Positions 5,806 through 26,176 of a DNA stretch of 40,014 nt are shown in pieces. The stretch's first letter is position 1; each line of letters starts with the position of its first letter. Origin of the DNA: a virus. The notes under the pieces were generated by a model, which saw only the letters and a program-made list of their open reading frames with translations, ran no database searches and was not told where the DNA came from. The translations under genes and the position numbers were made by a program. The stretch is taken from positions 1 to 40,014 of the IMG/VR virus record IMGVR_UViG_3300023179_000234. The stretch is one strand, 5' to 3'.

Positions 5806-6741
5806 TTAAGCCAAAGCCATCAATTCATCCATGGCACGTTGCTTAAGATCAGCACCACCACCAAACCAAGCATTGGCAAGTCGCGCATCGGTGGTACGAG
5901 CCGTTTCCCAATCGAGCAACTGAGTGACAGCGTTAAACGCACCCCATGCCGTACCTTTGGCACTATCCATCTCCGAGCCGATGCCGGCGCCATCAAAGAG
6001 TGCTTGCGCACGAACGGCTGCGCGGCTAGGCTTTTCAACATCACCGCCAAGAAGCTTAGCAAAAAACTTAGTTGATTGCTCGGCCGAGATTTTGATACGA
6101 GCCAAAGTCTTGGACGCCGCAGCAAAGCCGACAAAAGCCTCATTCAAATCGCCGAGCTGCTCTTTAACAGTAATTGGATCAAACACCGAGGAGTGGCGAA
6201 CCTGGATAGCGCGGCCCCCATTAACGGCAATCTGCATGGTGTTGTTACATACAACGCGGATGGGAGTGAGTCGTGCCTGAGTGGCAAGTGAACCATCGGC
6301 CGAGCTAGCCAAAAGGAGATACTGTTTGACCAAATCGCCGTTGATGTCAAACTCACCACGCATACGGGCCAAGGCCCAATAATGCGCGCCATCGCGTAAG
6401 ACGCCGGCGGTTTCCAATTCGGCGATCGTACCAACCATGTCGCGAAAGAATTCCAAAACCTCGATAGGCTGAACAATTTTGTAACGGCTTGAGACCAGAC
6501 CAAGAGGCATTTGCGTATCGGTGCGGTACATCACCTTGCGGCCTTCAAAGCTACGAAGGGTGTTGTTGGCACCAAACTGCACGGTTGCCGTAGCAAGTTT
6601 GAAATCCAGACCAGACTCGGTGGCCCAGGTCTCGATGGAAGAATCCGCCGTGAGCTGCTGGCCAAGGCCATGCCAAGGCGTTTGGCCAACGTAAGCCATT
6701 GCTGCTTTGCCGGTTGTGGTGGTTGCTAACATATGTGCCAT
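5806..6741 (-). CDS. DUF932 / TIGR03299 phage-plasmid protein
   Basis: A 311-aa soluble protein of the DUF932 family, found in many phages and plasmids and of unknown activity. Diagnostic stretches are TPWHGLGQQL, FEGRKVMYRTD, PLGLVSSRYKIVQPIEVLEF, HYWALARMRGEF, YLLLASSADGSLATQ and RVVCNNTM. Length is usual for the family. It has its own promoter, a GAAAGGA site seven bases upstream of the ATG and its own terminator, so it is a separately regulated and probably highly expressed early gene. Confidence 0.93.
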   Translation of the reverse strand: MAHMLATTTTGKAAMAYVGQTPWHGLGQQLTADSSIETWATESGLDFKLATATVQFGANNTLRSFEGRKVMYRTDTQMPLGLVSSRYKIVQPIEVLEFFRDMVGTIAELETAGVLRDGAHYWALARMRGEFDINGDLVKQYLLLASSADGSLATQARLTPIRVVCNNTMQIAVNGGRAIQVRHSSVFDPITVKEQLGDLNEAFVGFAAASKTLARIKISAEQSTKFFAKLLGGDVEKPSRAAVRAQALFDGAGIGSEMDSAKGTAWGAFNAVTQLLDWETARTTDARLANAWFGGGADLKQRAMDELMALA

Positions 6742-11372: not shown

Positions 11373-12774
11373 GTCAAGGTTTGTTGCTCGGATTAAGCAA
11401 ACGCCTCAGCTCAATACGCTTAACTCTGAGCAACAAGTTGCTTTGTCAGCTCGTATTAAGTGGCTTCGCATTGCCAATAAGCATCAAATCCCGCCCAAAG
11501 GCGATTGGTGGCGTATTTGGCTTTTGCTGGCCGGACGGGGTGCGGGCAAAACACGCGCAGCAGCTGAGTGGACTTGGAACGAAGCTTGGACTAAGCCTAA
11601 AACTCGATGGTTAGTCTCGGCACCGACATCAGGGGATGTCCGCGACGTATGCTTTGAGGGCGACTCGGGTCTTATGTCAATCATCCCCAATGAGATCATT
11701 GATCATTATACTCGAAGCCTGCATGAGATTTACCTCATCAATGGGTCCTTGATTAAAGGCATTCCTGCATCGGAGCCTTCTCGATTTCGAGGTCCACAAT
11801 TTCATGGTGGCTGGCTGGATGAGCTTGCAGCATGGGAGTATCTGGACGATGCCTGGGATATGATTCAATTTGGTATGCGATTGGGCAGCGCCCCTCGATT
11901 AATCTGTACCACTACGCCAAAGCCAAAGCCTTTGATTGTGGACTTGGTAAACCGCGATGGCGAGGATGTGATCTATACATCGGCGTCGACCTATGATAAT
12001 CTCCACAATCTGGCCGCAACATTCAAACAGCAAATTCTCCAATATGAGGGCACAAAGCTTGGACGCCAGGAAATCTACGCCGAGATTATCGATCCGGAAG
12101 AATCCGGCATCGTCAAACGTGATTGGTTTAAGCTTTGGCCTAGCGAAAAGCCTTTGCCTCAGTTTGAGTATATCGTGCAATCTTATGATTGCGCAACCAG
12201 CGATAAGACTCATAATGACCCAACTGCCTGCAGCGTTTGGGGTGTCTTTAAGCCTAGTCCTGATAAACCGACCAGTGTAATGCTCATCGACTGTTGGGAA
12301 GAATACATGCAATACCCGGACTTGCGGCCTAAGGTCGTCGATGAGTCGCAAATCGTATATGGCGACCCCAATGAGTTTGGGCATGGTAAAAAAGTGGATT
12401 TGATTTTGATCGAGGACAAATCCGCAGGCATTAGTCTTCTCCAAGACTTGCAACGCGCCGGTTTGCCTGTTCGAGCTTATAATCCGAGCAACGCCGATAA
12501 GATGTCCCGTCTTAATATTGTGGCACCCATCATACAGCGTGGCCGCGTATATATACCCGAAAGTATGAAGAATGAAGGCTGCGCTCGAGATTGGGCTGAA
12601 CCTCTTATCACACAACTTTGTGCATTTCCTGAGGTCCGACATGACGATTTATTGGATACTGTGACACAGGCACTCAGGATTTTACGTGACATGGGGTTCA
12701 TAAACATCGATCCGGTGTATGATGATGAGGACTACGATGAGCGACCAAGAAGGGTAAATCCATATGCCGTCTGA
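11353..12774 (+). CDS. Terminase large subunit (ATPase and nuclease)
   Basis: A 473-aa packaging motor. Walker A is AGRGAGKT (residues 60-67), Walker B is GWLDELAAW (D156/E157), and CTTTPKPKP is a coupling motif. The RNase H-like nuclease domain has YDCATSD (D279), LIEDKSAG (E354/D355) and HDDLLD (D431, D432, D435). It cuts concatemers and drives DNA through the portal. The ATG at 11353 lies inside the small-subunit gene with AAGAGG directly in front, which suggests translational coupling. Confidence 0.96.
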   Translation: MISQELESRFVARIKQTPQLNTLNSEQQVALSARIKWLRIANKHQIPPKGDWWRIWLLLAGRGAGKTRAAAEWTWNEAWTKPKTRWLVSAPTSGDVRDVCFEGDSGLMSIIPNEIIDHYTRSLHEIYLINGSLIKGIPASEPSRFRGPQFHGGWLDELAAWEYLDDAWDMIQFGMRLGSAPRLICTTTPKPKPLIVDLVNRDGEDVIYTSASTYDNLHNLAATFKQQILQYEGTKLGRQEIYAEIIDPEESGIVKRDWFKLWPSEKPLPQFEYIVQSYDCATSDKTHNDPTACSVWGVFKPSPDKPTSVMLIDCWEEYMQYPDLRPKVVDESQIVYGDPNEFGHGKKVDLILIEDKSAGISLLQDLQRAGLPVRAYNPSNADKMSRLNIVAPIIQRGRVYIPESMKNEGCARDWAEPLITQLCAFPEVRHDDLLDTVTQALRILRDMGFINIDPVYDDEDYDERPRRVNPYAV

Positions 12775-14125
12775 TACGCCTGATCTAGCTCAAATGCGAG
12801 CTGAGATGCTCATGAACGAATTGCCTACTTATGGCAATGACGGCATGGACATGTTTCAACGAGATCCGAGCATGCAACAAGTCGGATTGTTTGGCAAAAA
12901 GCCACCTGCACCTAAAGCACCGCCTGTTGAACTTGCCGATCCAACTAGGCGAGCATTCTTTAAAATGCCTATGCAGGATCAATTACCCGCGGTTGTGCCA
13001 TCACCCATGGCTCCAAAGCCAGGTAATTTACCCATGGTGCCTGCTCAGCCAAGTATCGAAGCACTTATGCCACCCACGCCCAATGTGGCGCCGTCTACAC
13101 CCAATGTGGCGCCGCCGCCAACGCAGCCTGAACAACCTGGCATTTTGGAATCCCTTGCCAATAAGGCGCTTGAAACGCCTATGACGCGCCGTGGGTTCTT
13201 GGAAACTACCGGCCGAGCCGCTGCATCACACATGCTCAAGCCTAAGATTGATCTTGGTCTATTTAATGAGTCGCCTTTAACTCAAGCAGCCGAACTTGCT
13301 CCACAAGCTGCGCCGATGTCAATTACAACGGCTGCGGCAAACTTCGTATCCAAGCAACTTAATAGCCCAGAGTTTGATAGCGTAACAGATAAGATCAAGG
13401 GTATATTGCAGGAAAATGGCTATGGGAATTATGCGGATGAGCTGGATGAAGAGCCTTCACTACTCTTTTCATTCATAGAACCTTACATGGAAGAGTATGA
13501 GCCTGGTTTACGAAATCAAATTGTCAACGTGATTGACAACTTTATTGGCGTTAAACGTCTTGCTGAGGACTCGGGTATTCCACTTAATGTTTTACATGCA
13601 AATGGAATTACTGATATCGTATTGCAAAGTCCTTTGGAAGATGTTTCTCATTCGATGCGAGGCGCATTTAAAGAATATATTGAAGATGGTGACGAATACG
13701 GCGCGATTCAAACATTTCAAACGCATTTTGTCGATGATGACATGGAACAAATTATCGACGCAGAATTGGCAAAATACCCTAAACGTATGTCATTAAAAGC
13801 ACTTGATGACGCAGGTGCAGTAGATAACATTTACAATAGCATGCTTGAAGTATTTTTGCGTAGTTATGCAAACATTAAAACGCGCAAATCAGCCGACCCA
13901 ACTCAGCATGACTTATTGCATGAAGAGTTACATGAAAAGCTTTCCGAAGTAGGCATAAAAGATTTAACCAATGTGGCGCAACATATATTTGGTTTAGTAC
14001 AAAACATGGTAGGGCCTTTCGAAGAACTTATTCGACAAAACATTTCTCTTCGTCGTAGAAACAAACCTATTAAGTCTGTAGGCGATGTTTTAGATGGTAA
14101 CAACGAATACGACTATGATGACTAA
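12764..14125 (+). CDS. Uncharacterised 453-aa phage protein with two internal twin-arginine motifs
   Basis: No known family recognised. Residues 45-130 are Pro/Met/Ala-rich and probably disordered, with a short tandem repeat (TPNVAP twice, about 104-116). Two motifs resemble Tat signals but are internal: TRRAFFK (61-67) and TRRGFLETTGRAAA (141-154). Residues 190-453 are acidic and helical, with LHEELHEKLSEVGIK and a DNNEYDYDD-like acidic end. It overlaps terminase by 11 bases and precedes a 1211-aa protein and the portal, so a virion-associated or ejected protein is plausible. No catalytic motif is visible. Confidence 0.75.
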   Translation: MPSDTPDLAQMRAEMLMNELPTYGNDGMDMFQRDPSMQQVGLFGKKPPAPKAPPVELADPTRRAFFKMPMQDQLPAVVPSPMAPKPGNLPMVPAQPSIEALMPPTPNVAPSTPNVAPPPTQPEQPGILESLANKALETPMTRRGFLETTGRAAASHMLKPKIDLGLFNESPLTQAAELAPQAAPMSITTAAANFVSKQLNSPEFDSVTDKIKGILQENGYGNYADELDEEPSLLFSFIEPYMEEYEPGLRNQIVNVIDNFIGVKRLAEDSGIPLNVLHANGITDIVLQSPLEDVSHSMRGAFKEYIEDGDEYGAIQTFQTHFVDDDMEQIIDAELAKYPKRMSLKALDDAGAVDNIYNSMLEVFLRSYANIKTRKSADPTQHDLLHEELHEKLSEVGIKDLTNVAQHIFGLVQNMVGPFEELIRQNISLRRRNKPIKSVGDVLDGNNEYDYDD

Positions 14126-14133
14126 GGATAACC

Positions 14134-17100
14134 ATGGCAACTGATGAACTTGCGGGTTTTCTTTCAGCATTGCAAGAACCTGAACAGCGCCCACCTACAG
14201 ATTATGAAATGCGGTACGCATTGGCGTTGGATGAGCTAAGAAAGCGACAAGAAGCAAGATCGGAAGTGCCTAGTGTTGCACGCGCAAGTCCGGATCAGCA
14301 AACACAAGCTATTCGAGACATGTACACTCGACAGTATGTTGAGGGCATGCAACCTAGGCCTGATACCTCACAGCGTTTTCCGCCACAGCCTAAGTCATAT
14401 GCTTATAAGTTGGCCGATGCCACGCGAAAAGCGTATGGTGCTTTATCATCTGTGTCGCCCACAATGCGTGCAGCAGAGTCGATGAGGCCTGCAGCCGAGG
14501 TGGCTGCAACGCTTGGCACAGGTGCATTAGCTTTTCCCACAGCAGCGCTTTATGGCGTAGGTCGTGCCGGAACCGAGGCCATTCGACAAAAACTAGGCTA
14601 CGCACCCTCACCCGATGTTAACAAAGACATCGTGTCGGATGCTATCAAAGCCATGACGTATGAGCCTAAGACCGAGAGCGCGCAAGGCGCCTTAGGTGCT
14701 ATTGCACAAGGTTTTGAAGCGTCCAAGATACCGCATGCTTGGCCTGGCGTGCCTCGAACTCTTATAACGCCGGAAGCCCTGCAAGTTGCAGGTGCTCGAA
14801 CCGGTATGCGTTTAGGGGAATTGAGAGATATTCCGGCCGATATTGCTATGCAACGGCAAGGTTTAACGCGCCGCAATGTGATGAATGAGCCTACTCTTGG
14901 TGCGCAAATGGGTAAAGGCATTGACATTGTTGGTGAGGCTTTGCCACAGCAACGACAGGACTTAGGTCTGTTATTAGAAAGCCAAAGTGGTGCCGTACGG
15001 CCACAGGGTTCTCGAATCTTGCAGCCTGAAATTCCACCTGGAATGCAGCCTGAGCAATCTGCCATAGACAGTAATCTATCGCAGACACTTAAGCATGTTC
15101 TTAAGCTTTCTGCTGTGCCATATACAACAGAGCAGTTTCGACAGCCTCGTAATTTAGAAGGTGCAATTAGCAATGCCTATTTTGATAGGCGTGAAATACC
15201 ACGCGCATTAGGCATTGATATACCTCAAGAAAAAATAAATAAGTTAAATGAGATGCGTCAGGCATTTACCGAAGACTACATACAAAAAATGTTTCCTATG
15301 GCTACAGACGCCGCGGAAGCTTTTGACATGTATCGATTGCGTTTTAATACAGCTCCAGCAATAGAAGCGCAAGATGCAAAGATCTTTTCAGAGTTCTTAA
15401 AGTCTGATGAATTGCAAAAATGGAAAGACGCCGAAAGCGTTTATATTCCAACCATGGAAGAGTTTGAGCATAAACTTTCTAAGTTTGATGATTGGATTGA
15501 TAAGAAAGTTGTACACAATTACGTATCAAAGTTTGTAGGTACTGCACAAGACCCAATGATTCAGCTTATTGCGAAGGGTGAAGGCCCCGAATCGGCTGAA
15601 GTTCTTTCCAAAAGGCTTGATCGACCGCACCCATCAGATTATATTCAACAGATGCGAAAGCAAGCCGGTTTCCCTGAAATAGAGACACCAACACGTATTG
15701 CGGCTGTGCAAGCTGAAAGAGAATTAGAACAGCTAGAATATCGTTTAGACGCTTTAGAGTTTGCTAAAGAAGAAGCAAGTCGTGAGGCTGATGTATTGGG
15801 CATAGCACCTATAACGCACCCGCCCTTTTTAGATGCTCGAAATCAAATTCGAGAAATAGCGCCACAAGTCGAAGCAGCACAAGAAAATGTTAATAACCTT
15901 AACGCAGCTTTGCAATACGAGCATACGGCCGATCGAGCAATTAGCCCTATCATACCTGAAAAAAGAGCAGAGTTTATAAAACACTTAGGTGCTAGGCGGT
16001 TTATTTATCCGAATCTTCATAAGATACCTGAATCTGAAACGTTATACACATATTATCGAGGCGCAAATTTACAATCGCTTATATTACAAGATACTGTTAG
16101 TGAAATTGCAAGAAAATATTTTTCAGGCCGACTTACCGATGCGCAACTTGATAATTTAGATTTTCCTAAAGCCGTGCAAAAAGAAGCACAAGAACGTATT
16201 GTACGTGAAAACAAAGAAAAAATTGCGCTAAAGCAATACGTTTTTGACGTAAAAGAAAAAGCTAAAGAAGACATGCATCAATTTGCAAACTTTTTGGATG
16301 ATTCAGGCAAGATTGCGGTGATTGAGCTTGATGACTCACTTCCCATAGACGAGCTTAAACGATTGGCTTCAATGGATACCGAGGTGTTGAATCATTGCAT
16401 AGCTGAAGGCGGCGAGCATACATGGAAACAACACCCTTTTACATTGGAAAAAGATAAATACTTTTATAAGGGTATTGTGCATCCGGTAACGGGCAAATCC
16501 CAATCAGGCGTAGACTTAACACGATATCTTCAGCTTGCAGTTGACAATAAAGCAATGTACCCTAGCATTAGAGATGCTGAGACAGGATTGCCTATTGCAA
16601 CTTTAAAATTTAGTAAACTATCAAATGGATTGCTTGCACTTTCGGAGTTAAAAGGCCCTAAAAATGAACAAATCATCAATGTCCATCAACTTGCAGGTCC
16701 CATTGCTGATTATTTAAACTCAAAAGCGCATTTAATTACTAATAACTACGATGGCATCCACGATTTAACTGTTAACACGAATGGTCATATTGTTGACTTG
16801 CTCCATGAAGACTCATCATCAAAAATTGCGCAATCTATAGGCGTAAAAGAACCTGAAGTGCTTAAATACGACTTCTCGCCCGTTGATGGTAAAAGGTTTG
16901 TTACGCGCAAAGAATTACGCGATCAATACAGATCATATAAAGAAATGGAAAAGCTTGGTCCGCCTGAAGTTGCGCCTGAGCCCCCACCCCCTCCGCCTCC
17001 TGAACCCGCACTCGCGCCGCCTATTGCAGAAGAGCCTTTGAATTTTGAAGGTGATTGGGTCGCAGAGCCTGTATATTTGCATGTACCTAATGCGCAAACG

Positions 17101-17769
17101 CTACTTAATTATGCGTTATCTCTTGAAGATCTTCCCCCAAATCAATATATTGTTCCAGCTGAGATACAACAGTTAACAACACCGCAAGTTTACGCAATGG
17201 TTAATGGCCCTGAATTACAAGAATTACGGCATTTTTTTAATGGGCTTTATCGCGAAATATCACAAGATATGACGCCACTTGATTGGCCTGGTCCACCAGA
17301 ATCGCTATATGATATACAGCTTGGTATATTAAATTGGGCCAAAAGTGCTAAAGACCATCTTAGACAAGGCAATTCTTTGGGGCCTATGTTTGACGACCCG
17401 ATAAGACGCGAAATACTTGTAAGAATGCTTGATGAGATTAGAATGCCTGTTATTGTTGATGAGATTCTTAATGCAGCCAATGAAGAGGGTTGGTTTAATG
17501 GCAATGCCGAGTATAATCGTATTCCTTATGAGATCACGGCGCTTTCGGATGAAGATTTAAGCGCCGCACTTGCTGGCCAAGACACCGCTTCACTCTCATC
17601 GCTTGCATATAATCTTATGCTTGGTTATGGCATTGAAAATAATCCTGAAAGATTGATGGAAATAGCCTCGGAGATTCGCAATCGTAATATGTTTGGGCCT
17701 ACGCTAACGCATCCGCATGATCGCGAATGGATTGCAAGGTATTTAGAGCAATCGGCGGGTGAAAGATAA
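14134..17769 (+). CDS. Giant 1211-aa protein with PcfJ-like segment, possible ejected virion protein
   Basis: No full-length family recognised. Residues 117-142 form a hydrophobic Gly/Ala-rich stretch (ATLGTGALAFPTAALYGVG). Residues 520-620 are coiled-coil-like (AVQAERELEQLEYRLDALEF). Residues 750-865 resemble PcfJ-like domains: EVLNHCIAEGG (750-760), then SIRDAETGLPIATLKF (811-826) and ELKGPKNEQI (837-846). A Pro-rich linker follows near 948-970. Base composition is AT-rich compared with terminase. Position between terminase and portal, length and hydrophobic N-terminus fit an internal protein delivered with the DNA, but this is inference. AAGGA lies five bases before the ATG. Confidence 0.8.
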   Translation: MATDELAGFLSALQEPEQRPPTDYEMRYALALDELRKRQEARSEVPSVARASPDQQTQAIRDMYTRQYVEGMQPRPDTSQRFPPQPKSYAYKLADATRKAYGALSSVSPTMRAAESMRPAAEVAATLGTGALAFPTAALYGVGRAGTEAIRQKLGYAPSPDVNKDIVSDAIKAMTYEPKTESAQGALGAIAQGFEASKIPHAWPGVPRTLITPEALQVAGARTGMRLGELRDIPADIAMQRQGLTRRNVMNEPTLGAQMGKGIDIVGEALPQQRQDLGLLLESQSGAVRPQGSRILQPEIPPGMQPEQSAIDSNLSQTLKHVLKLSAVPYTTEQFRQPRNLEGAISNAYFDRREIPRALGIDIPQEKINKLNEMRQAFTEDYIQKMFPMATDAAEAFDMYRLRFNTAPAIEAQDAKIFSEFLKSDELQKWKDAESVYIPTMEEFEHKLSKFDDWIDKKVVHNYVSKFVGTAQDPMIQLIAKGEGPESAEVLSKRLDRPHPSDYIQQMRKQAGFPEIETPTRIAAVQAERELEQLEYRLDALEFAKEEASREADVLGIAPITHPPFLDARNQIREIAPQVEAAQENVNNLNAALQYEHTADRAISPIIPEKRAEFIKHLGARRFIYPNLHKIPESETLYTYYRGANLQSLILQDTVSEIARKYFSGRLTDAQLDNLDFPKAVQKEAQERIVRENKEKIALKQYVFDVKEKAKEDMHQFANFLDDSGKIAVIELDDSLPIDELKRLASMDTEVLNHCIAEGGEHTWKQHPFTLEKDKYFYKGIVHPVTGKSQSGVDLTRYLQLAVDNKAMYPSIRDAETGLPIATLKFSKLSNGLLALSELKGPKNEQIINVHQLAGPIADYLNSKAHLITNNYDGIHDLTVNTNGHIVDLLHEDSSSKIAQSIGVKEPEVLKYDFSPVDGKRFVTRKELRDQYRSYKEMEKLGPPEVAPEPPPPPPPEPALAPPIAEEPLNFEGDWVAEPVYLHVPNAQTLLNYALSLEDLPPNQYIVPAEIQQLTTPQVYAMVNGPELQELRHFFNGLYREISQDMTPLDWPGPPESLYDIQLGILNWAKSAKDHLRQGNSLGPMFDDPIRREILVRMLDEIRMPVIVDEILNAANEEGWFNGNAEYNRIPYEITALSDEDLSAALAGQDTASLSSLAYNLMLGYGIENNPERLMEIASEIRNRNMFGPTLTHPHDREWIARYLEQSAGER

Positions 17770-17793: not shown

Positions 17794-20325
17794 ATGGCTA
17801 TTGAGATGCCAATCCCTCAAGACTTTAATCGGTTTATCGACCCGGTAGTTGAAGATGCCGAAGTTGAAGAGTCTGAGGAAAATACTTCAATTTTTGAATT
17901 ATTTGATAAACAAGAGCCTGAAGTTGAAGAATTACCTGATGGCAGCGCTATTGTTCGTGTTAAAGACCCCGGACCTTTAGAGGAGCCTGACTTTTATGAA
18001 AACATGGCCGATTCAATTCCACAATATAAACTTACGCCGCTTGCTCAGAAATATCTTGATCTTATTGAGAAAGACCGCGAGGCGCGTGAAGATCGCGACA
18101 AGCAATACGAAGAAGGAATCCGTCGAACGGGATTAGGTAAAGACGCGCCGGGTGGAGCGCAGTTTCAAGGCGCCAGCAAAGTCGTGCACCCCATCATGGC
18201 CGAAGCATGCGTGGATTTTTCGGCTCGTGCCATCAAAGAGCTATTCCCACCTGAAGGACCTGTGCGAACTAAAATTGTAGGCGAGACGACCGATGATAAA
18301 GTTGCTCGTGCCGAGCGTAAGCGCGACTTTATGAATTGGCAGCTCACCGAGCAAATTGTTGAGTTTAGAGCCGAGGAAGAGCAAATGCTTTCGCAAATGC
18401 CTCTTGGCGGTAGCCAATACTTTAAGATGTGGTTTGATGAGCAGCAACGTCGGCCGTGCGTCGAGTTCGTCCCCATCGACAATATCTATTTGCCCTATGC
18501 GGCAGGAAGTTTTTACACAGCTCAGCGCGTAACGGAAGTTAACGACATTACGCAAGAAACCTTTGACATCCGCGTTAATCAAGGCTTGTATATTGACTTG
18601 GATTTAACGCCACCGTCCGAAGCGCCTGATCAAACCAAGGCCGAACAAGCAACGGATAAGGTTGAGGGTAAAGCCGCGCAGGCTATGAACATTGACGGCG
18701 TCCGCCGCGTCTTCCATATCTATACATGGTTGGAAATGGATGAGGAAGATGATGGCTTTTCAAAAGGCGAACGGGCGCCTTATATCCTTATGGTTGATGA
18801 GCTTAACCGCGCCGTGGTTGGTTTATATCGTAACTGGGAATATAACGATAAGCGGATGGAAAAGCTTGATTGGCTCATTGAGTTTCCATTTATTCCGTGG
18901 CGAGGAGCCTACGCCATTGGCATGCCGCATTTAATTGGTGGTTTATCGGCGGCGTTGACGGGAACTTTGCGCGCATTGCTCGACGCCGCACATATCGTCA
19001 ACGCGCCTACCATGTTGAAGCTTAAAGGCGCAAAGATTAGTGGGCAATCCACAAGCATTGAGCCGACGCAAGTTTCGGAAATCGAAGGTGCTCCTGGTGT
19101 AGACGATATTCGTAAAGTCGCTATGCCTGTACCATTTAATCAGCCTAGTCCTGTTTTATTTGAGTTGCTTGGTTGGTTAACCACTGCTGCAAAAGGCGTT
19201 GTAACAACATCTGAGGAAAAAATTGCCGATGTTACGTCCAACGCGCCTGTTGGTACAACACAGGCTTTGATTGAGCAAGGCGCTGCGGTCTTCTCGGCCA
19301 TTCATGCGCGATTGCATGCCAGCCAACGCCGTGTTTTACAAGTACTTGCGCGAATCAACCGCTGGTATTTTGAGGATATGGACAAGGCCGAGATGGTCGA
19401 GGAGCTTGGCATTTCAAAGGAAGACTTTGAAAAGAATAGCGATGTTATGCCGGTTAGCGACCCGCATATCTTTGCCGAGACACAACGGTATGCGCAAATT
19501 CAAACTTTGGCAGCACGTGCCGAGAAAAACCCGGACTTGTATAACCGCATAGCCGTTGAAAAGAGAATTCTAAAGCAAATTAAATTGCCTGATATTAACG
19601 AGGTTTTACCCGATCCTAAAGACGTTAAGGAAATGAATCCGGCTTTGGAGAATGTGGCCATGACGTTGGGTAAACCCGTCGGTGCGTTTCCTCAGCAAGA
19701 TCACATTGCGCATCTCATGGTCCATTGTGCCTATGCCATTGACCCTACGTATGGCGCCAGTCCATTGATTGCTAAGACTTTTACACCGGCGTTTTTAGAG
19801 CATACTAAACAGCATTTGGCACTTTGGTATTTGAATCAGGTTGATGGGTATGCCAGCGCCGCGCTTGATCGGCCTTTTAATGTCTTAAAAGAACAGCGCT
19901 TGCCTTATGAGGCTGATAAGTTTATGGCCGTTATTGCGCAGTTGGTGCATAAGGATACGGCTATGACGTTTGAAAAGATCCAACAAGTCGTACAGGGCGC
20001 TATGCAAGTCATGCAGCAATTGCAACCACAGCCGCCTATGGATCCGGCAACACAGGCGTTTGTACAAACATCTATGGCTGAAACGCAAAGACGTGCTGTT
20101 AAGGACCAAGCCGACGTACAGCTTAATATGGCTAAGTTGCAACAAAAGGCCGAGTTTGATCAATCTAAGCTCCAAGCCGATATTATTATGAACACGGAAG
20201 ATAACTTAGTGAATGAAAGAATCAAGACGGCAGAACTAACGCGCGATGCTGCCGAATTGCAAAATGAGCAGGTACGTACTGCTCTTGACGCGCAGCGTGT
20301 TGTTCAAACTTCTTTAGGAGCATGA
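17794..20325 (+). CDS. Portal protein
   Basis: At 843 aa this is a large podovirus-type portal, forming the dodecameric DNA gate at one capsid vertex. Characteristic parts are an acidic N-terminal extension (1-70), QYEEGIRRTGLGKDAPGGAQ, KVVHPIMAEACVDFSARAIK, KMWFDEQQRRPCVEFVPIDN, and PFIPWRGAYAIGMPHLIGGL. A Gln-rich coiled-coil barrel-like C-terminus follows (residues 730-843, QVVQGAMQVMQQLQPQPP). CGGAG lies nine bases before the ATG. It binds terminase during packaging and the connector proteins encoded further right afterwards. Confidence 0.93.
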   Translation: MAIEMPIPQDFNRFIDPVVEDAEVEESEENTSIFELFDKQEPEVEELPDGSAIVRVKDPGPLEEPDFYENMADSIPQYKLTPLAQKYLDLIEKDREAREDRDKQYEEGIRRTGLGKDAPGGAQFQGASKVVHPIMAEACVDFSARAIKELFPPEGPVRTKIVGETTDDKVARAERKRDFMNWQLTEQIVEFRAEEEQMLSQMPLGGSQYFKMWFDEQQRRPCVEFVPIDNIYLPYAAGSFYTAQRVTEVNDITQETFDIRVNQGLYIDLDLTPPSEAPDQTKAEQATDKVEGKAAQAMNIDGVRRVFHIYTWLEMDEEDDGFSKGERAPYILMVDELNRAVVGLYRNWEYNDKRMEKLDWLIEFPFIPWRGAYAIGMPHLIGGLSAALTGTLRALLDAAHIVNAPTMLKLKGAKISGQSTSIEPTQVSEIEGAPGVDDIRKVAMPVPFNQPSPVLFELLGWLTTAAKGVVTTSEEKIADVTSNAPVGTTQALIEQGAAVFSAIHARLHASQRRVLQVLARINRWYFEDMDKAEMVEELGISKEDFEKNSDVMPVSDPHIFAETQRYAQIQTLAARAEKNPDLYNRIAVEKRILKQIKLPDINEVLPDPKDVKEMNPALENVAMTLGKPVGAFPQQDHIAHLMVHCAYAIDPTYGASPLIAKTFTPAFLEHTKQHLALWYLNQVDGYASAALDRPFNVLKEQRLPYEADKFMAVIAQLVHKDTAMTFEKIQQVVQGAMQVMQQLQPQPPMDPATQAFVQTSMAETQRRAVKDQADVQLNMAKLQQKAEFDQSKLQADIIMNTEDNLVNERIKTAELTRDAAELQNEQVRTALDAQRVVQTSLGA

Positions 20326-20326
20326 A

Positions 20327-20617
20327 ATGTCAGACGAGGGAATTAATCTTCATAAGCGTATGGCTATGGGAGCGGGCGAAGGTGTTGCAAAAGCTGCCGG
20401 CAAAGGGCCTATTCAAAAATACAAAGCCGGTGGGCAGGTTATGCCTGAAAAGGGTGTTGCTAATTTGTCAGCCCGTGGCTCTGCGCCTCCACCCTTACCC
20501 ATGGGCGGTAAGACTAAGATTGCGACAATGAAAAAAGGCGGTATGTCAAAAAAGCCACCCGGCTTGATGATTGCCATTGGTCTGCCTGTTAAGAAGTCAT
20601 CCGGTCGGGGCCGTTAA
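20327..20617 (+). CDS. Small basic Gly/Lys/Pro-rich protein (96 aa)
   Basis: A low-complexity basic protein: KAAGKGPIQKYKAGGQVMPE, then GGKTKIATMKKGGMSKKPPG and a KKSSGRGR tail. Its KYxAGGxV motif recurs in the 164-aa protein at 24809. No folded domain is evident. Such proteins occur in phage head modules and might bind DNA or coat the inner capsid; this is inference. It starts one base after the portal stop and ends in a TAATG overlap with the next gene. Confidence 0.75.
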   Translation: MSDEGINLHKRMAMGAGEGVAKAAGKGPIQKYKAGGQVMPEKGVANLSARGSAPPPLPMGGKTKIATMKKGGMSKKPPGLMIAIGLPVKKSSGRGR

Positions 20618-20799
20618 TGCGTGTATCCGATCTTATTGGTCGAATAAAAGCTGCGCAATTAAAGCTTGCAGGATCTCTAACTAATGGAACTCCGCAATCT
20701 TTTGATGCCTATCAGCGTTTAGTCGGTCAGCACCAAGGCTTGGATGAAGCCTTGAATATTATCAATCAACTTTTAGAAGAGGCTGAAAATGTCGAATGA
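20617..20799 (+). CDS. Small helical protein in the head module (60 aa)
   Basis: Begins MRVSDLIGRIKAAQLKLAGS and ends NIINQLLEEAENVE. It is almost all helix, with a QHQGLDEALNIINQLLEEAE coiled-coil-like end, and resembles short phage proteins of unknown function that follow portal genes. It overlaps the basic protein upstream and the GroES-like gene downstream (11 bases), so it is translated as part of the same block. Confidence 0.7.
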   Translation: MRVSDLIGRIKAAQLKLAGSLTNGTPQSFDAYQRLVGQHQGLDEALNIINQLLEEAENVE

Positions 20800-21211
20800 C
20801 ATTGTAGAACAAACGCTTGAAGAAGCGTTTCCTGACGTCGATCCTATGATGACGCCTTACGGAGCAAGAGTCTTAATACAATTGCGTGCGGTAAAGGAAA
20901 AAGTATCAAAAGCAGGCTTGGTTTTGGTTGAAGAAACTCGAGAAGCCGAGAAATGGAACACAATGATTGGTAAAGTCATTGCAATTGGGCCTTTGGCCTT
21001 TAAAAAACGTGACTCAATGGAGCCTTGGCCTGAAGGATCTTGGGCTGAAGTAGGTGAATTTGTTCGCGTGCCAAAGTGGGGCGGTGATCGATGGGAAGTC
21101 GACTATGAAAATGGTGAGCAAAATGGCAAAGCTTTGTTTACTTTTTTCAATGACCATGAATTAATTGGCAAAGTCACCGGCGACCCATTGAAAATCAAAG
21201 CTTTCATTTAA
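20789..21211 (+). CDS. GroES-like co-chaperonin (phage Cpn10)
   Basis: A 140-aa protein with the Cpn10 beta-barrel pattern: PYGARVLIQLRAVKEKVSKA, GLVLVEETREAEKW (the mobile-loop region, with GLVL in place of the usual GGIVL), GKVIAIGPLAF, then VGEFVRVPKWGGDRWEVD and FNDHELIGKV. It is longer than bacterial GroES (about 97 aa) because of inserts around residues 70-80 and 100-115. Phages such as T4 encode a GroES substitute (gp31) that works with host GroEL to fold capsid protein; its place between portal and capsid genes suggests the same role. GAGG lies about seven bases before the ATG. Confidence 0.85.
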   Translation: MSNDIVEQTLEEAFPDVDPMMTPYGARVLIQLRAVKEKVSKAGLVLVEETREAEKWNTMIGKVIAIGPLAFKKRDSMEPWPEGSWAEVGEFVRVPKWGGDRWEVDYENGEQNGKALFTFFNDHELIGKVTGDPLKIKAFI

Positions 21212-24808: not shown

Positions 24809-25303
24809 ATGGGTCAATTTAAGCTAATGCCAAAGATGGAAACGACTGAGCCTTCAGTTATTCTTAAACTTGCAAATGGTGGCACTGTGAAAAAAGCAAT
24901 GGGCGGAGCTATGAAAAAAGCAATGGGCGGTGCTATGCGCAATCCTACATTGGCTACTACAAATGAGCGTATGCCCATGGCCGCAATGCCTTCGGAACGT
25001 GGCGCGCCCATGGCAGCTCGTCGCGGTGTAGCGCCTAAAATGACAGTGCCTTCAGGTGGTATGCGCGGTCCTATGATGCGTAAAAAAGGCGGCGAAGTTG
25101 AGTCCAAGTCGATGCATAAGGCAGAAATGTCTGAAATGAAAGGCATCAAGAAGGAACTCAAGTCGCATGAGGATAAGCCTGCTTCAAAGGCTCACAAAGG
25201 CCTGAAGACTGGTGGCGCAGTACCTAAGTATAACACCGGTGGCGTTATTGAAAAATACGCTAAAGGTGGTAAAATGAAGAAAGCCTACGGCGGCGCGTGC
25301 TAA
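24809..25303 (+). CDS. Basic low-complexity Lys/Gly/Met-rich protein (164 aa)
   Basis: Rich in Lys, Gly, Met and Ala, with a direct repeat KKAMGGAM (residues 28-43) and a C-terminal set of Gly-Gly motifs: LKTGGAVPKYNTGGVIEKYA and GGKMKKAYGGAC. It resembles the 96-aa protein at 20327 in composition and in the KYxxGGV motif. No folded domain is predicted. It may condense DNA or decorate the shell as a packaged protein; that is inference. It is followed by a clear terminator. Confidence 0.75.
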   Translation: MGQFKLMPKMETTEPSVILKLANGGTVKKAMGGAMKKAMGGAMRNPTLATTNERMPMAAMPSERGAPMAARRGVAPKMTVPSGGMRGPMMRKKGGEVESKSMHKAEMSEMKGIKKELKSHEDKPASKAHKGLKTGGAVPKYNTGGVIEKYAKGGKMKKAYGGAC

Positions 25304-25344: not shown

Positions 25345-25752
25345 ATGGCAGATGCAGTAGCAAGTCAAACATTGTTTGATGGCGAACGCATGGCCATCAT
25401 GAAATTTACCAACATTTCAGATGGCACTGGTGAAAATAAAGTCTTAAAAGTTGACGTTTCAGCTTTAGGCGCAAGCAATTCAGGCAAAGCCTGTGATGGC
25501 GTAACAATTACTAAGATTCATGCTGCAACTCATGGCATGGAAGTACAGATTTATTGGGACGCAACGACTGATGTATTTGCCTGGGGCATCGCGCAAAACT
25601 CTCAATATTCATTTGATTTTGAGAAGATGGGTGGCTTAATAAATAATGCTGGTGCAGGAAGTACTGGCGATGTTTTGTTTTCAACCGCTGACGCTTCGGC
25701 AGGAGATTTTTACACCATCGTTTTGGAAATGGTGAAGAGCTATGCCAGCTAA
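25345..25752 (+). CDS. Virion structural protein (135 aa)
   Basis: A beta-rich protein: MADAVASQTLFDGERMAIMK, then FTNISDGTGENKVLKVDVSA, MEVQIYWDATTDVFAWGIAQ and a final FYTIVLEMVKSYAS. The length and strand pattern suggest a small head-tail joining or decoration protein, but no family is certain. GGGGA precedes the ATG at 25345 by about six bases; a TTG at 25333 is an unlikely start. The end overlaps the next gene by 11 bases. Confidence 0.72.
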   Translation: MADAVASQTLFDGERMAIMKFTNISDGTGENKVLKVDVSALGASNSGKACDGVTITKIHAATHGMEVQIYWDATTDVFAWGIAQNSQYSFDFEKMGGLINNAGAGSTGDVLFSTADASAGDFYTIVLEMVKSYAS

Positions 25753-26176
25753 ATCAAAAGCGCAGTTTAGATTAATGAAGGCCGCCGAAACAAGCCCTTT
25801 ATTTGCTAAAAAAGTAGGTATACCTTCAAAGGTTGCAAAAGAATATACGCAATCTAATGTTAAGAGCAAAGCCTATTCTAAATTACCTGAAAAGATGGCT
25901 AAAGGTGGTGACCCGCGGCTATCTGTTTCTCGTGGTGAAAAGCTGCCTACATCACAAGGCGCCGGTTTAACTGAAAAAGGGCGTCAAAAATTTAATCGCG
26001 CAACAGGTGCAAACTTAAAAGCACCTGCGCCACACCCAAAAACAAAAGCAGATGCTGGGCGTAAAAAATCATTTTGCGCCCGTATGAGTGGCATGCCTGG
26101 GCCAAAATATGATGATAAAGGTAACTTAACGCGCAAAGCAGCATCGTTAAAACGTTGGAAATGCCCGGGGTGGTAA
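25742..26176 (+). CDS. DUF6321-like basic protein
   Basis: A 144-aa Lys/Arg-rich protein. The N-terminal part is MPAKSKAQFRLMKAAETSPL. The C-terminal half has GAGLTEKGRQKFNRATGANL, KAPAPHP, GRKKSFCARMSGMPGPKYDD and a final ASLKRWKC, which matches the DUF6321 pattern seen in many phages. The function is unknown; a packaged or structural role is suggested by position and charge. It starts inside the previous gene and ends directly against the next ATG. Confidence 0.82.
   Translation: MPAKSKAQFRLMKAAETSPLFAKKVGIPSKVAKEYTQSNVKSKAYSKLPEKMAKGGDPRLSVSRGEKLPTSQGAGLTEKGRQKFNRATGANLKAPAPHPKTKADAGRKKSFCARMSGMPGPKYDDKGNLTRKAASLKRWKCPGW

What the first reader, a model, noticed from the sequence alone, without database searches (positions are those of the whole stretch)
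14134..17769. 1211-aa protein with a PcfJ-like segment between terminase and portal
Residues 750-865 carry LNHCIAEGG, SIRDAETGLPIATL and ELKGPKNEQI, matching the order seen in PcfJ-like proteins of plasmids and phages, whose function is poorly known. Here it appears embedded in a giant protein with a hydrophobic N-terminal stretch and a coiled coil. If it is a virion protein delivered with DNA, this would be an undescribed context for the PcfJ fold.
Basis: partly seen in the sequence, partly recalled or inferred. Interest (0 to 1): 0.72.

Follow-up and report, generated by a model that had tools for sequence, protein, structure and literature searches.

The report
Divergent PcfJ-type phage cargo protein
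A freshwater-type phage carries, in a swappable slot between its DNA-packaging and portal genes, a giant protein with a diverged copy of the little-understood PcfJ module, which probably rides with the phage DNA into the host and, on predicted structure, resembles enzymes that acetylate other molecules.

Summary
The ORF and all three motifs are real (752-760, 811-824, 838-847). PF14284 itself does not hit the protein, but residues ~450-935 are a collinear, diverged copy of a ~400-500-aa PcfJ module (profile-profile E 3e-11; column-shuffled controls 0.06 or worse). Relatives of that module at the same place do pass PF14284.

The context is not unique. In the 80 best IMG/VR relatives a PcfJ ORF sits between TerL and portal nearly wherever the contig allows it to be seen, and one deposited metagenomic phage is annotated that way. 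In close relatives the window-type module is the only gene in the slot, preceded by the same 453-aa ORF as here, or fused behind a canonical PcfJ module. Some phages with related portals lack it. Slot proteins are sometimes fused to ART-PolyVal or LPD23, hallmarks of polyvalent proteins.

AlphaFold models of both module types retrieve GNAT acetyltransferases almost exclusively (Foldseek E 0.025 at best; VIA Z 8.4, canonical), with the conserved QxKGxxN loop where GNATs bind acyl-CoA. Sequence profiles do not support GNAT homology.

Most likely: a modular polyvalent-type accessory protein with a divergent PcfJ module, probably packaged and injected. Packaging and enzyme activity are inferred. 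New variant of a known kind.

The parts
14134..17769 (+). 1211-aa ORF (P0001), window-type PcfJ slot protein
   Evidence: relatives L001, L002, L096-L099
14124..14128 (+). ribosome-binding-site-like AAGGA before the ATG
   Evidence: sequence
14134..15423 (+). N-terminal region, residues 1-430, found only in near relatives; mildly hydrophobic at 121-142
15484..16203 (+). pre-core part of the PcfJ module, residues 451-690 (WIDKK..GT.QDP, ALQYEHTAD, PESETLYTY, LTDAQLDNLDFPKAV)
   Evidence: hhalign to canonical PcfJ modules, E 4.4e-11
15688..15939 (+). predicted long helical hairpin, residues 519-602, inserted relative to canonical modules
   Evidence: AlphaFold model and alignment
16339..16938 (+). 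PcfJ core, residues 736-935, predicted GNAT-like fold
16387..16413 (+). LNHCIAEGG motif, residues 752-760 (H754 invariant in 45 sequences, C755 nearly)
16564..16605 (+). SIRDAETGLPIATL motif, residues 811-824 (beta2-beta3 of the model)
16645..16674 (+). ELKGPKNEQI motif, residues 838-847; loop between beta4 and alpha3; E838 replaces a Q present in the other 44 sequences
16984..17007 (+). proline-rich linker, residues 951-958
   Evidence: sequence
17011..17766 (+). C-terminal region, residues 960-1211, no match; fastest evolving part (dN/dS 0.26)
12764..14125 (+). 453-aa ORF sharing the slot; also in L099; replaced by a canonical PcfJ module (fused) in L001 and L002, absent in L096 and L098
11353..12774 (+). 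large terminase, 5' border of the slot
17794..20325 (+). portal protein, 3' border of the slot

Best explanation
P0001 is an accessory, modular protein of the phage 'polyvalent protein' type, encoded in a variable slot between TerL and portal and carrying a diverged, full-length copy of the PcfJ module. Proposed working: it is made late with the virion genes, packaged into the head, and enters the cell with the DNA; there the PcfJ core, which has a predicted GNAT-like fold, binds an acyl-CoA or similar ligand and modifies or occupies a host target such as RNA polymerase, the ribosome or a defence protein. Shown by computation: the collinear PcfJ module, the conserved slot, the module shuffling, absence from some relatives, polyvalent-domain fusions in relatives, purifying selection. 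Inferred from prediction only: the GNAT-like fold. Not shown: packaging, injection, enzymatic activity, target. In this copy the invariant Q of the candidate ligand loop is E, so it may be altered or inactive.
For: PcfJ kinship: hhalign E 3.3e-11, 379 collinear columns; 20 column shuffles give 0.06 or worse and the reversed profile 0.19; the core alone is weak (E 0.001). PF14284 passes in the same slot in L006, L007 and DSL-LC04 and in 34 of 37 slot ORFs. The P0001 model retrieves proteins named PcfJ-like (EFDG1 prob 1.00, ctkvU4 0.99). Slot: 83 PcfJ loci, TerL upstream in 69, portal downstream in 73, both in 60, most of the rest truncated contigs. Accessory: absent between TerL and portal in Caulobacter phage RLK and Roseobacter phage CRP-901; other content in MW202545 (GP88 domain) and HTVC027P. 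Shuffling. Polyvalent: ART-PolyVal in 4 of 37 PcfJ ORFs, LPD23 in 1; Iyer et al. describe phage polyvalent proteins as encoded near virion genes, with ART and GNAT as neighbours (PMC5512222). Virion link: L063 PcfJ ORF has an N-terminal tag shared with PHROG virion structural proteins and with window ORF 25742-26176; YerA41 PcfJ protein labelled structural protein. GNAT-like. dN/dS 0.22 against 0.03 (TerL) and 0.02 (portal).
Against: PF14284 does not hit P0001 and core-only profile similarity is weak. No Foldseek PDB match reaches E 0.001. GNAT and PcfJ profiles do not align (E 0.79, like controls). The 6th position of the GNAT motif Q/R-x-x-G-x-G/A is not G/A in P0001 or in most bacterial PcfJ relatives, and YerA41 lacks the G. 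P0001 itself has no recognised polyvalent domain. No proteomics of this clade is available; DSL-LC04 is metagenome-assembled, and the YerA41 label could not be traced to its proteome table. The VIA list for the P0001 model is filled by its helical hairpin, not by GNATs.
Confidence: 0.58

Rival explanations
1. A late protein that acts only inside the producing cell (counter-defence or host take-over) and is not packaged; the slot is merely a convenient late-expressed locus.
For: No virion proteomics for this clade. The window protein lacks the (F/Y)AxGGxV motif and the N-terminal tag seen on relatives. Accessory distribution and fast evolution fit.
Against: Placement inside the packaging and head gene block; polyvalent-type fusions; virion-type tag on L063; YerA41 label.
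Confidence: 0.22
2. A structural or assembly protein of the head or portal vertex (scaffold, internal core, ejection protein) in which the PcfJ module is a non-catalytic building block.
For: Conserved location directly before portal; large size; helical hairpin; one PHROG virion label by tag.
Against: Absent from RLK and CRP-901, whose portals are 47% and 33% identical to the window's; module content varies freely between close relatives; dN/dS 7-10 times that of TerL and portal.
Confidence: 0.15
3. The PcfJ core is not GNAT-like; the fold hits reflect a common alpha/beta arrangement in an abundant PDB superfamily, and its activity, if any, is of another kind.
For: Foldseek E at or above 0.025; the canonical model's best VIA Z of 8.4 lies near the background for models without true relatives (note); no profile match; the loop motif is not strictly conserved.
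Against: All 50 VIA entries listed for the canonical module and most Foldseek hits of both models belong to one superfamily; viral hits mix PcfJ-like and N-acetyltransferase names; order of elements and position of QIKGKG match GNAT.
Confidence: 0.45
4. The window-type module is a decaying or inactive duplicate of the canonical PcfJ module.
For: Q838E at a position that is Q in the other 44 sequences; large insertion in the core; PF14284 no longer detects it.
Against: dN/dS 0.21 for the module; intact ORF in the window and in L001, L002, L096 and L098 (L097 and L099 reach a contig end), where it can be the only gene in the slot; H, C, S-x-R-D and KG retained.
Confidence: 0.2

Closest known systems
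PcfJ family (Pfam PF14284; enterococcal pCF10 PcfJ and phage PcfJ-like proteins)
   Same: Same order of motifs HC..., S-x-R-D...P..T, [QE]xKGxxN followed by a helix; collinear with slot relatives that pass PF14284
   Different: P0001 is below PF14284 detection, has a ~37-residue longer HC-to-SIRD spacing than canonical copies, a helical hairpin inserted upstream, E in place of the invariant Q, and unique N- and C-terminal regions
'PcfJ-like protein' WJZ48068 of Phage DSL-LC04 (OR003939, metagenome-assembled)
   Same: Same place: TerL - PcfJ ORF - portal - GroES - major capsid
   Different: Canonical HCVGGY module; aligns with the N module of L001, not detectably with P0001 by tblastn
Phage polyvalent proteins (Iyer et al. 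2017, PMC5512222)
   Same: Large, modular, variable, encoded beside virion genes of terminase-portal phages; slot relatives carry ART-PolyVal or LPD23
   Different: P0001 itself has no recognised polyvalent domain; the word PcfJ does not occur in that paper's main text
GNAT N-acetyltransferases (HAT1, RimI-like, phage phiKMV Rac)
   Same: Predicted order of elements b1-a1-a2-b2-b3-b4-a3; loop QIKGKG in canonical copies resembles Q/RxxGxG/A
   Different: No sequence-profile similarity; motif only partly kept in P0001; activity unknown

Membership tests
PcfJ (PF14284) | Match to the PF14284 model at its cut-off | tested here: not met
   P0001: no match in hmmscan to E 1 or in six-frame search to E 10; slot relatives L006, L007, DSL-LC04 match. 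P0001 is therefore filed as a diverged relative of the family, not as a PF14284 member
PcfJ (PF14284) | HC, SxRD..xP, [QE]xKGxxN motifs in order | tested here: met
   Residues 752-760, 811-824, 838-847; H, S, R, G, G invariant over 45 aligned sequences; Q replaced by E
PcfJ (PF14284) | Homology to bona fide members by profile or fold | tested here: met
   hhalign E 3.3e-11 over the module against the canonical set, mostly from the pre-core part; Foldseek viral hits to PcfJ-like proteins at E 0.004-0.03. The model's alignment contained canonical rows, so the fold test is not fully independent
Phage polyvalent proteins | Multidomain polypeptide with recognised polyvalent effector domains | tested here: inconclusive
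   Not in P0001; in slot relatives ART-PolyVal 4 of 37, LPD23 1 of 37
Phage polyvalent proteins | Encoded beside virion genes of a terminase-portal phage | tested here: met
   TerL, portal, GroES-like and major-capsid genes around it
Phage polyvalent proteins | Packaged in the virion and injected | not testable with these tools
   Needs virion proteomics; indirect hints only
GNAT acetyltransferases | GNAT fold with acyl-CoA loop Q/R-x-x-G-x-G/A between beta4 and alpha3 | tested here: inconclusive
   Both models retrieve GNATs, none at E below 0.001; canonical loop QIKG[K]G/A fits, P0001 ELKGPK fits only at G; profiles do not match
GNAT acetyltransferases | Acyl-CoA binding or transfer activity | not testable with these tools
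   Needs biochemistry

The most novel reading that the evidence does not exclude
PcfJ, a domain of unknown function spread over phages, plasmids and bacteria, is a divergent GNAT-type acyltransferase, and a large group of aquatic phages keeps it in a dedicated cargo slot between terminase and portal, delivering it with the genome, sometimes next to an ADP-ribosyltransferase in the same polypeptide, to modify the host at the moment of entry.
Probability: 0.25. Interest if true: 0.8.

Novelty: new variant of a known kind. Interest (0 to 1): 0.52.

Why it matters
PcfJ has been a name without a function. The work gives it a concrete, testable fold hypothesis (GNAT-like), a very common genomic home (a cargo slot between TerL and portal of aquatic phages), and a link to polyvalent proteins through fusions with ADP-ribosyltransferase and LPD23 domains. 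If right, it adds a widespread module to the weapons phages inject with their DNA. If only the slot part is right, the locus is still a place to look for new injected effectors.

Tried and rejected
Pfam, PHROG, NCBIfam and PADLOC on P0001: nothing significant (the SidC_N hit on the portal at E 0.06 is below its cut-off and was ignored). tblastn of P0001 against phages: no match. phmmer against PDB sequences: only chance-level hits; profile of the canonical module: only a chance SecB patch HC.G.Y. GNAT against PcfJ by hhalign: no support. VIA search of the P0001 model: filled by coiled-coil matches to the helical hairpin, uninformative for the core. PcfJ in PLSDB plasmids by tblastn from the phage copy: none found, as expected at that distance. 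Literature: searches for PcfJ with phage, bacteriophage or acetyltransferase, and for PcfJ-like, gave no paper on its function in the open library. I first took DSL-LC04 for an isolate; its paper says it was assembled from a metagenome. The GenBank label 'structural protein' for YerA41_160 could not be checked against the proteome table, as supplements were closed. The N-terminal region of P0001 was searched for other fusion partners; only near relatives turned up.

Full report
WHAT IS THERE. The ORF is 14134-17769 (+), 1211 aa, with AAGGA five bases before its ATG. Upstream are TerS (phrog_309, 9.5e-20), TerL and a 453-aa ORF; downstream are portal, a GroES-like protein and the major capsid protein. 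The window is itself an IMG/VR virus record. Pfam, PHROG, NCBIfam and PADLOC find nothing in the protein, and PF14284 searched directly gives no match to E 10.

RELATIVES AND MODULES. Two metagenomic contigs gave the key. In L001 and L002 the window-type protein is fused, in one ORF of 1769 and at least 1981 aa, behind another module that contains YSLRDAKGQ.H.TIEV and ITQIKGxGNK...PFVQDFVRSG. That first module is a PcfJ module: its relatives L006, L007 and DSL-LC04 pass PF14284 (2.6e-6, 2.3e-7, 5.2e-9), and DSL-LC04 carries it between TerL and portal under the name PcfJ-like protein. Four more window-type relatives (L096-L099) show the slot's freedom: in L096 and L098 it is the only gene between TerL and portal, and in L099 it follows a relative of the window's 453-aa ORF. 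So the slot holds, in close relatives, the window-type module alone, a 453-aa ORF plus the module, or a canonical PcfJ module fused to it.

IS THE WINDOW SEGMENT PcfJ? Profile-profile comparison of seven window-type proteins with 80 canonical modules gives E 3.3e-11, collinear over 379 columns from WIDKK..GT.QDP to RFVTRKEL. Twenty column-shuffled profiles gave 0.06 or worse, and a reversed one 0.19. The signal comes mostly from the part before the core (4.4e-11); the core alone gives 0.001. In an alignment of 45 sequences H754, Y798, S811, R813, G818 and G841 are invariant and C755, D814, P820, K840 and N844 nearly so, while Q, present in the other 44 sequences, is E838 in the window. Bacterial relatives have QLRGPxN or QVRGKYN at this place, close to ELKGPKN. 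A fold search of the P0001 model against predicted viral proteins lists PcfJ-like proteins of EFDG1, ctkvU4, LP-064 and ME3 among its first ten; that model was built with canonical rows, so this is not fully independent.

CONTEXT. A scan of IMG/VR with the canonical module matched at least 573 places; of the 80 best, nearly all have the PcfJ ORF next to TerL and portal (83 loci: TerL upstream 69, portal downstream 73, both 60, the rest mostly at contig ends). The sample is the closest relatives, so it describes this clade, not all PcfJ. Phages with related portals can lack the gene: in Caulobacter phage RLK (portal 47% identical) TerL and portal are separated only by a tRNA, and in Roseobacter phage CRP-901 (33%) they overlap. 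Others hold unrelated proteins there: MW202545 has an 890-aa protein with a GP88 domain, and HTVC027P has two large proteins. Against L001, dN/dS is 0.22 for P0001 but 0.03 for TerL and 0.02 for portal. This is a retained, fast-changing accessory gene.

LINK TO POLYVALENT PROTEINS. Of 37 long slot ORFs, 34 match PF14284, 4 also carry ART-PolyVal and 1 carries LPD23. Iyer et al. (PMC5512222) describe phage polyvalent proteins as large multidomain proteins near virion genes, predicted to be packaged and injected, and note that one of their GNAT families typically has an ART as neighbour. PcfJ is not named in that paper's main text. Two hints place slot proteins in the virion: the PcfJ ORF of L063 starts with a ~40-aa tag shared with PHROG virion structural proteins and with window ORF 25742-26176, and a PcfJ protein of Yersinia phage YerA41 is labelled structural protein. 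YerA41 virions were analysed by LC-MS/MS, but I could not see the table.

FOLD. The canonical module folds with mean pLDDT 89 and the window module with 79. Foldseek against PDB lists GNAT acetyltransferases almost exclusively for both (best E 0.025 and 0.027). VIA-align on the canonical model gives HAT1 at Z 8.4 (121 residues, 3.5 A), and the 50 listed entries are GNATs. The order of elements fits GNAT, and the conserved QIKG[K][GA]N lies between beta4 and alpha3, where GNATs hold Q/R-x-x-G-x-G/A (the GNAT motif is established knowledge). Against this: no E below 0.001, Z 8.4 is near the stated background, profiles do not align (E 0.79), and the last motif position is not kept in P0001 or in the wider family. 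I put about one half on a GNAT-like fold for PcfJ and about one quarter on acyltransferase activity of this copy.

VERDICT. Packaging, injection and activity rest on inference only.

Noticed in passing
PcfJ slot ORFs in L005-L093; window 20327-20617 and 24809-25303: A short motif (F/Y/M)AxGG-x-(V/I/L) occurs 107 times in 76 PcfJ ORFs, at module borders and often 10-32 residues before the C-terminus, and not once in ~104,000 aa of TerL, TerS, portal, GroES and capsid ORFs. GG-x-V elements also recur in two small window ORFs. Possibly a linker, processing or capsid-targeting signal.
   Followed up: partly
window 25742-26176 and L063 4585-4710: N-terminal ~42-aa tag (MPxKSxxQxxFMxA...FAxKxGIP) shared by a small window protein, the PcfJ ORF of L063 and PHROG virion structural proteins.
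   Followed up: partly
window 12764-14125: The 453-aa slot ORF has an internal twin-arginine-like stretch TRRGFLETTGRAAASHM near residue 140; HTVC027P gp42 in the same slot has a similar SKRKFIKLGAG.
   Followed up: no
window 20789-21211: Phage-encoded GroES-like co-chaperonin (PF00166 2.4e-5), conserved downstream of portal in many relatives and in pelagiphages.
   Followed up: no
window 16645-16647: GAG (E838) where L001 has CAG and all other aligned modules encode Q, at the candidate ligand loop.
   Followed up: partly
window 5806-6741 (-): 311-aa protein starting MAHMLATTTTGKAAMAYVGQTPWHGLGQQLT; a similar one lies upstream of TerL in DSL-LC04 (L008 8062-9111).
   Followed up: no
L007 5787-8903, about residues 720-870: Between the PcfJ module and the last module lies a segment (GWHVTQDLPGVLQTGALTNRNVG...) that by eye looks like an ADP-ribosyltransferase-type domain; Pfam did not call it.
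   Followed up: no
L009 5227-7899 (MW202545): Same slot filled by an 890-aa protein with a GP88 domain (PF17338 2.8e-7), whose role is unknown.
   Followed up: no
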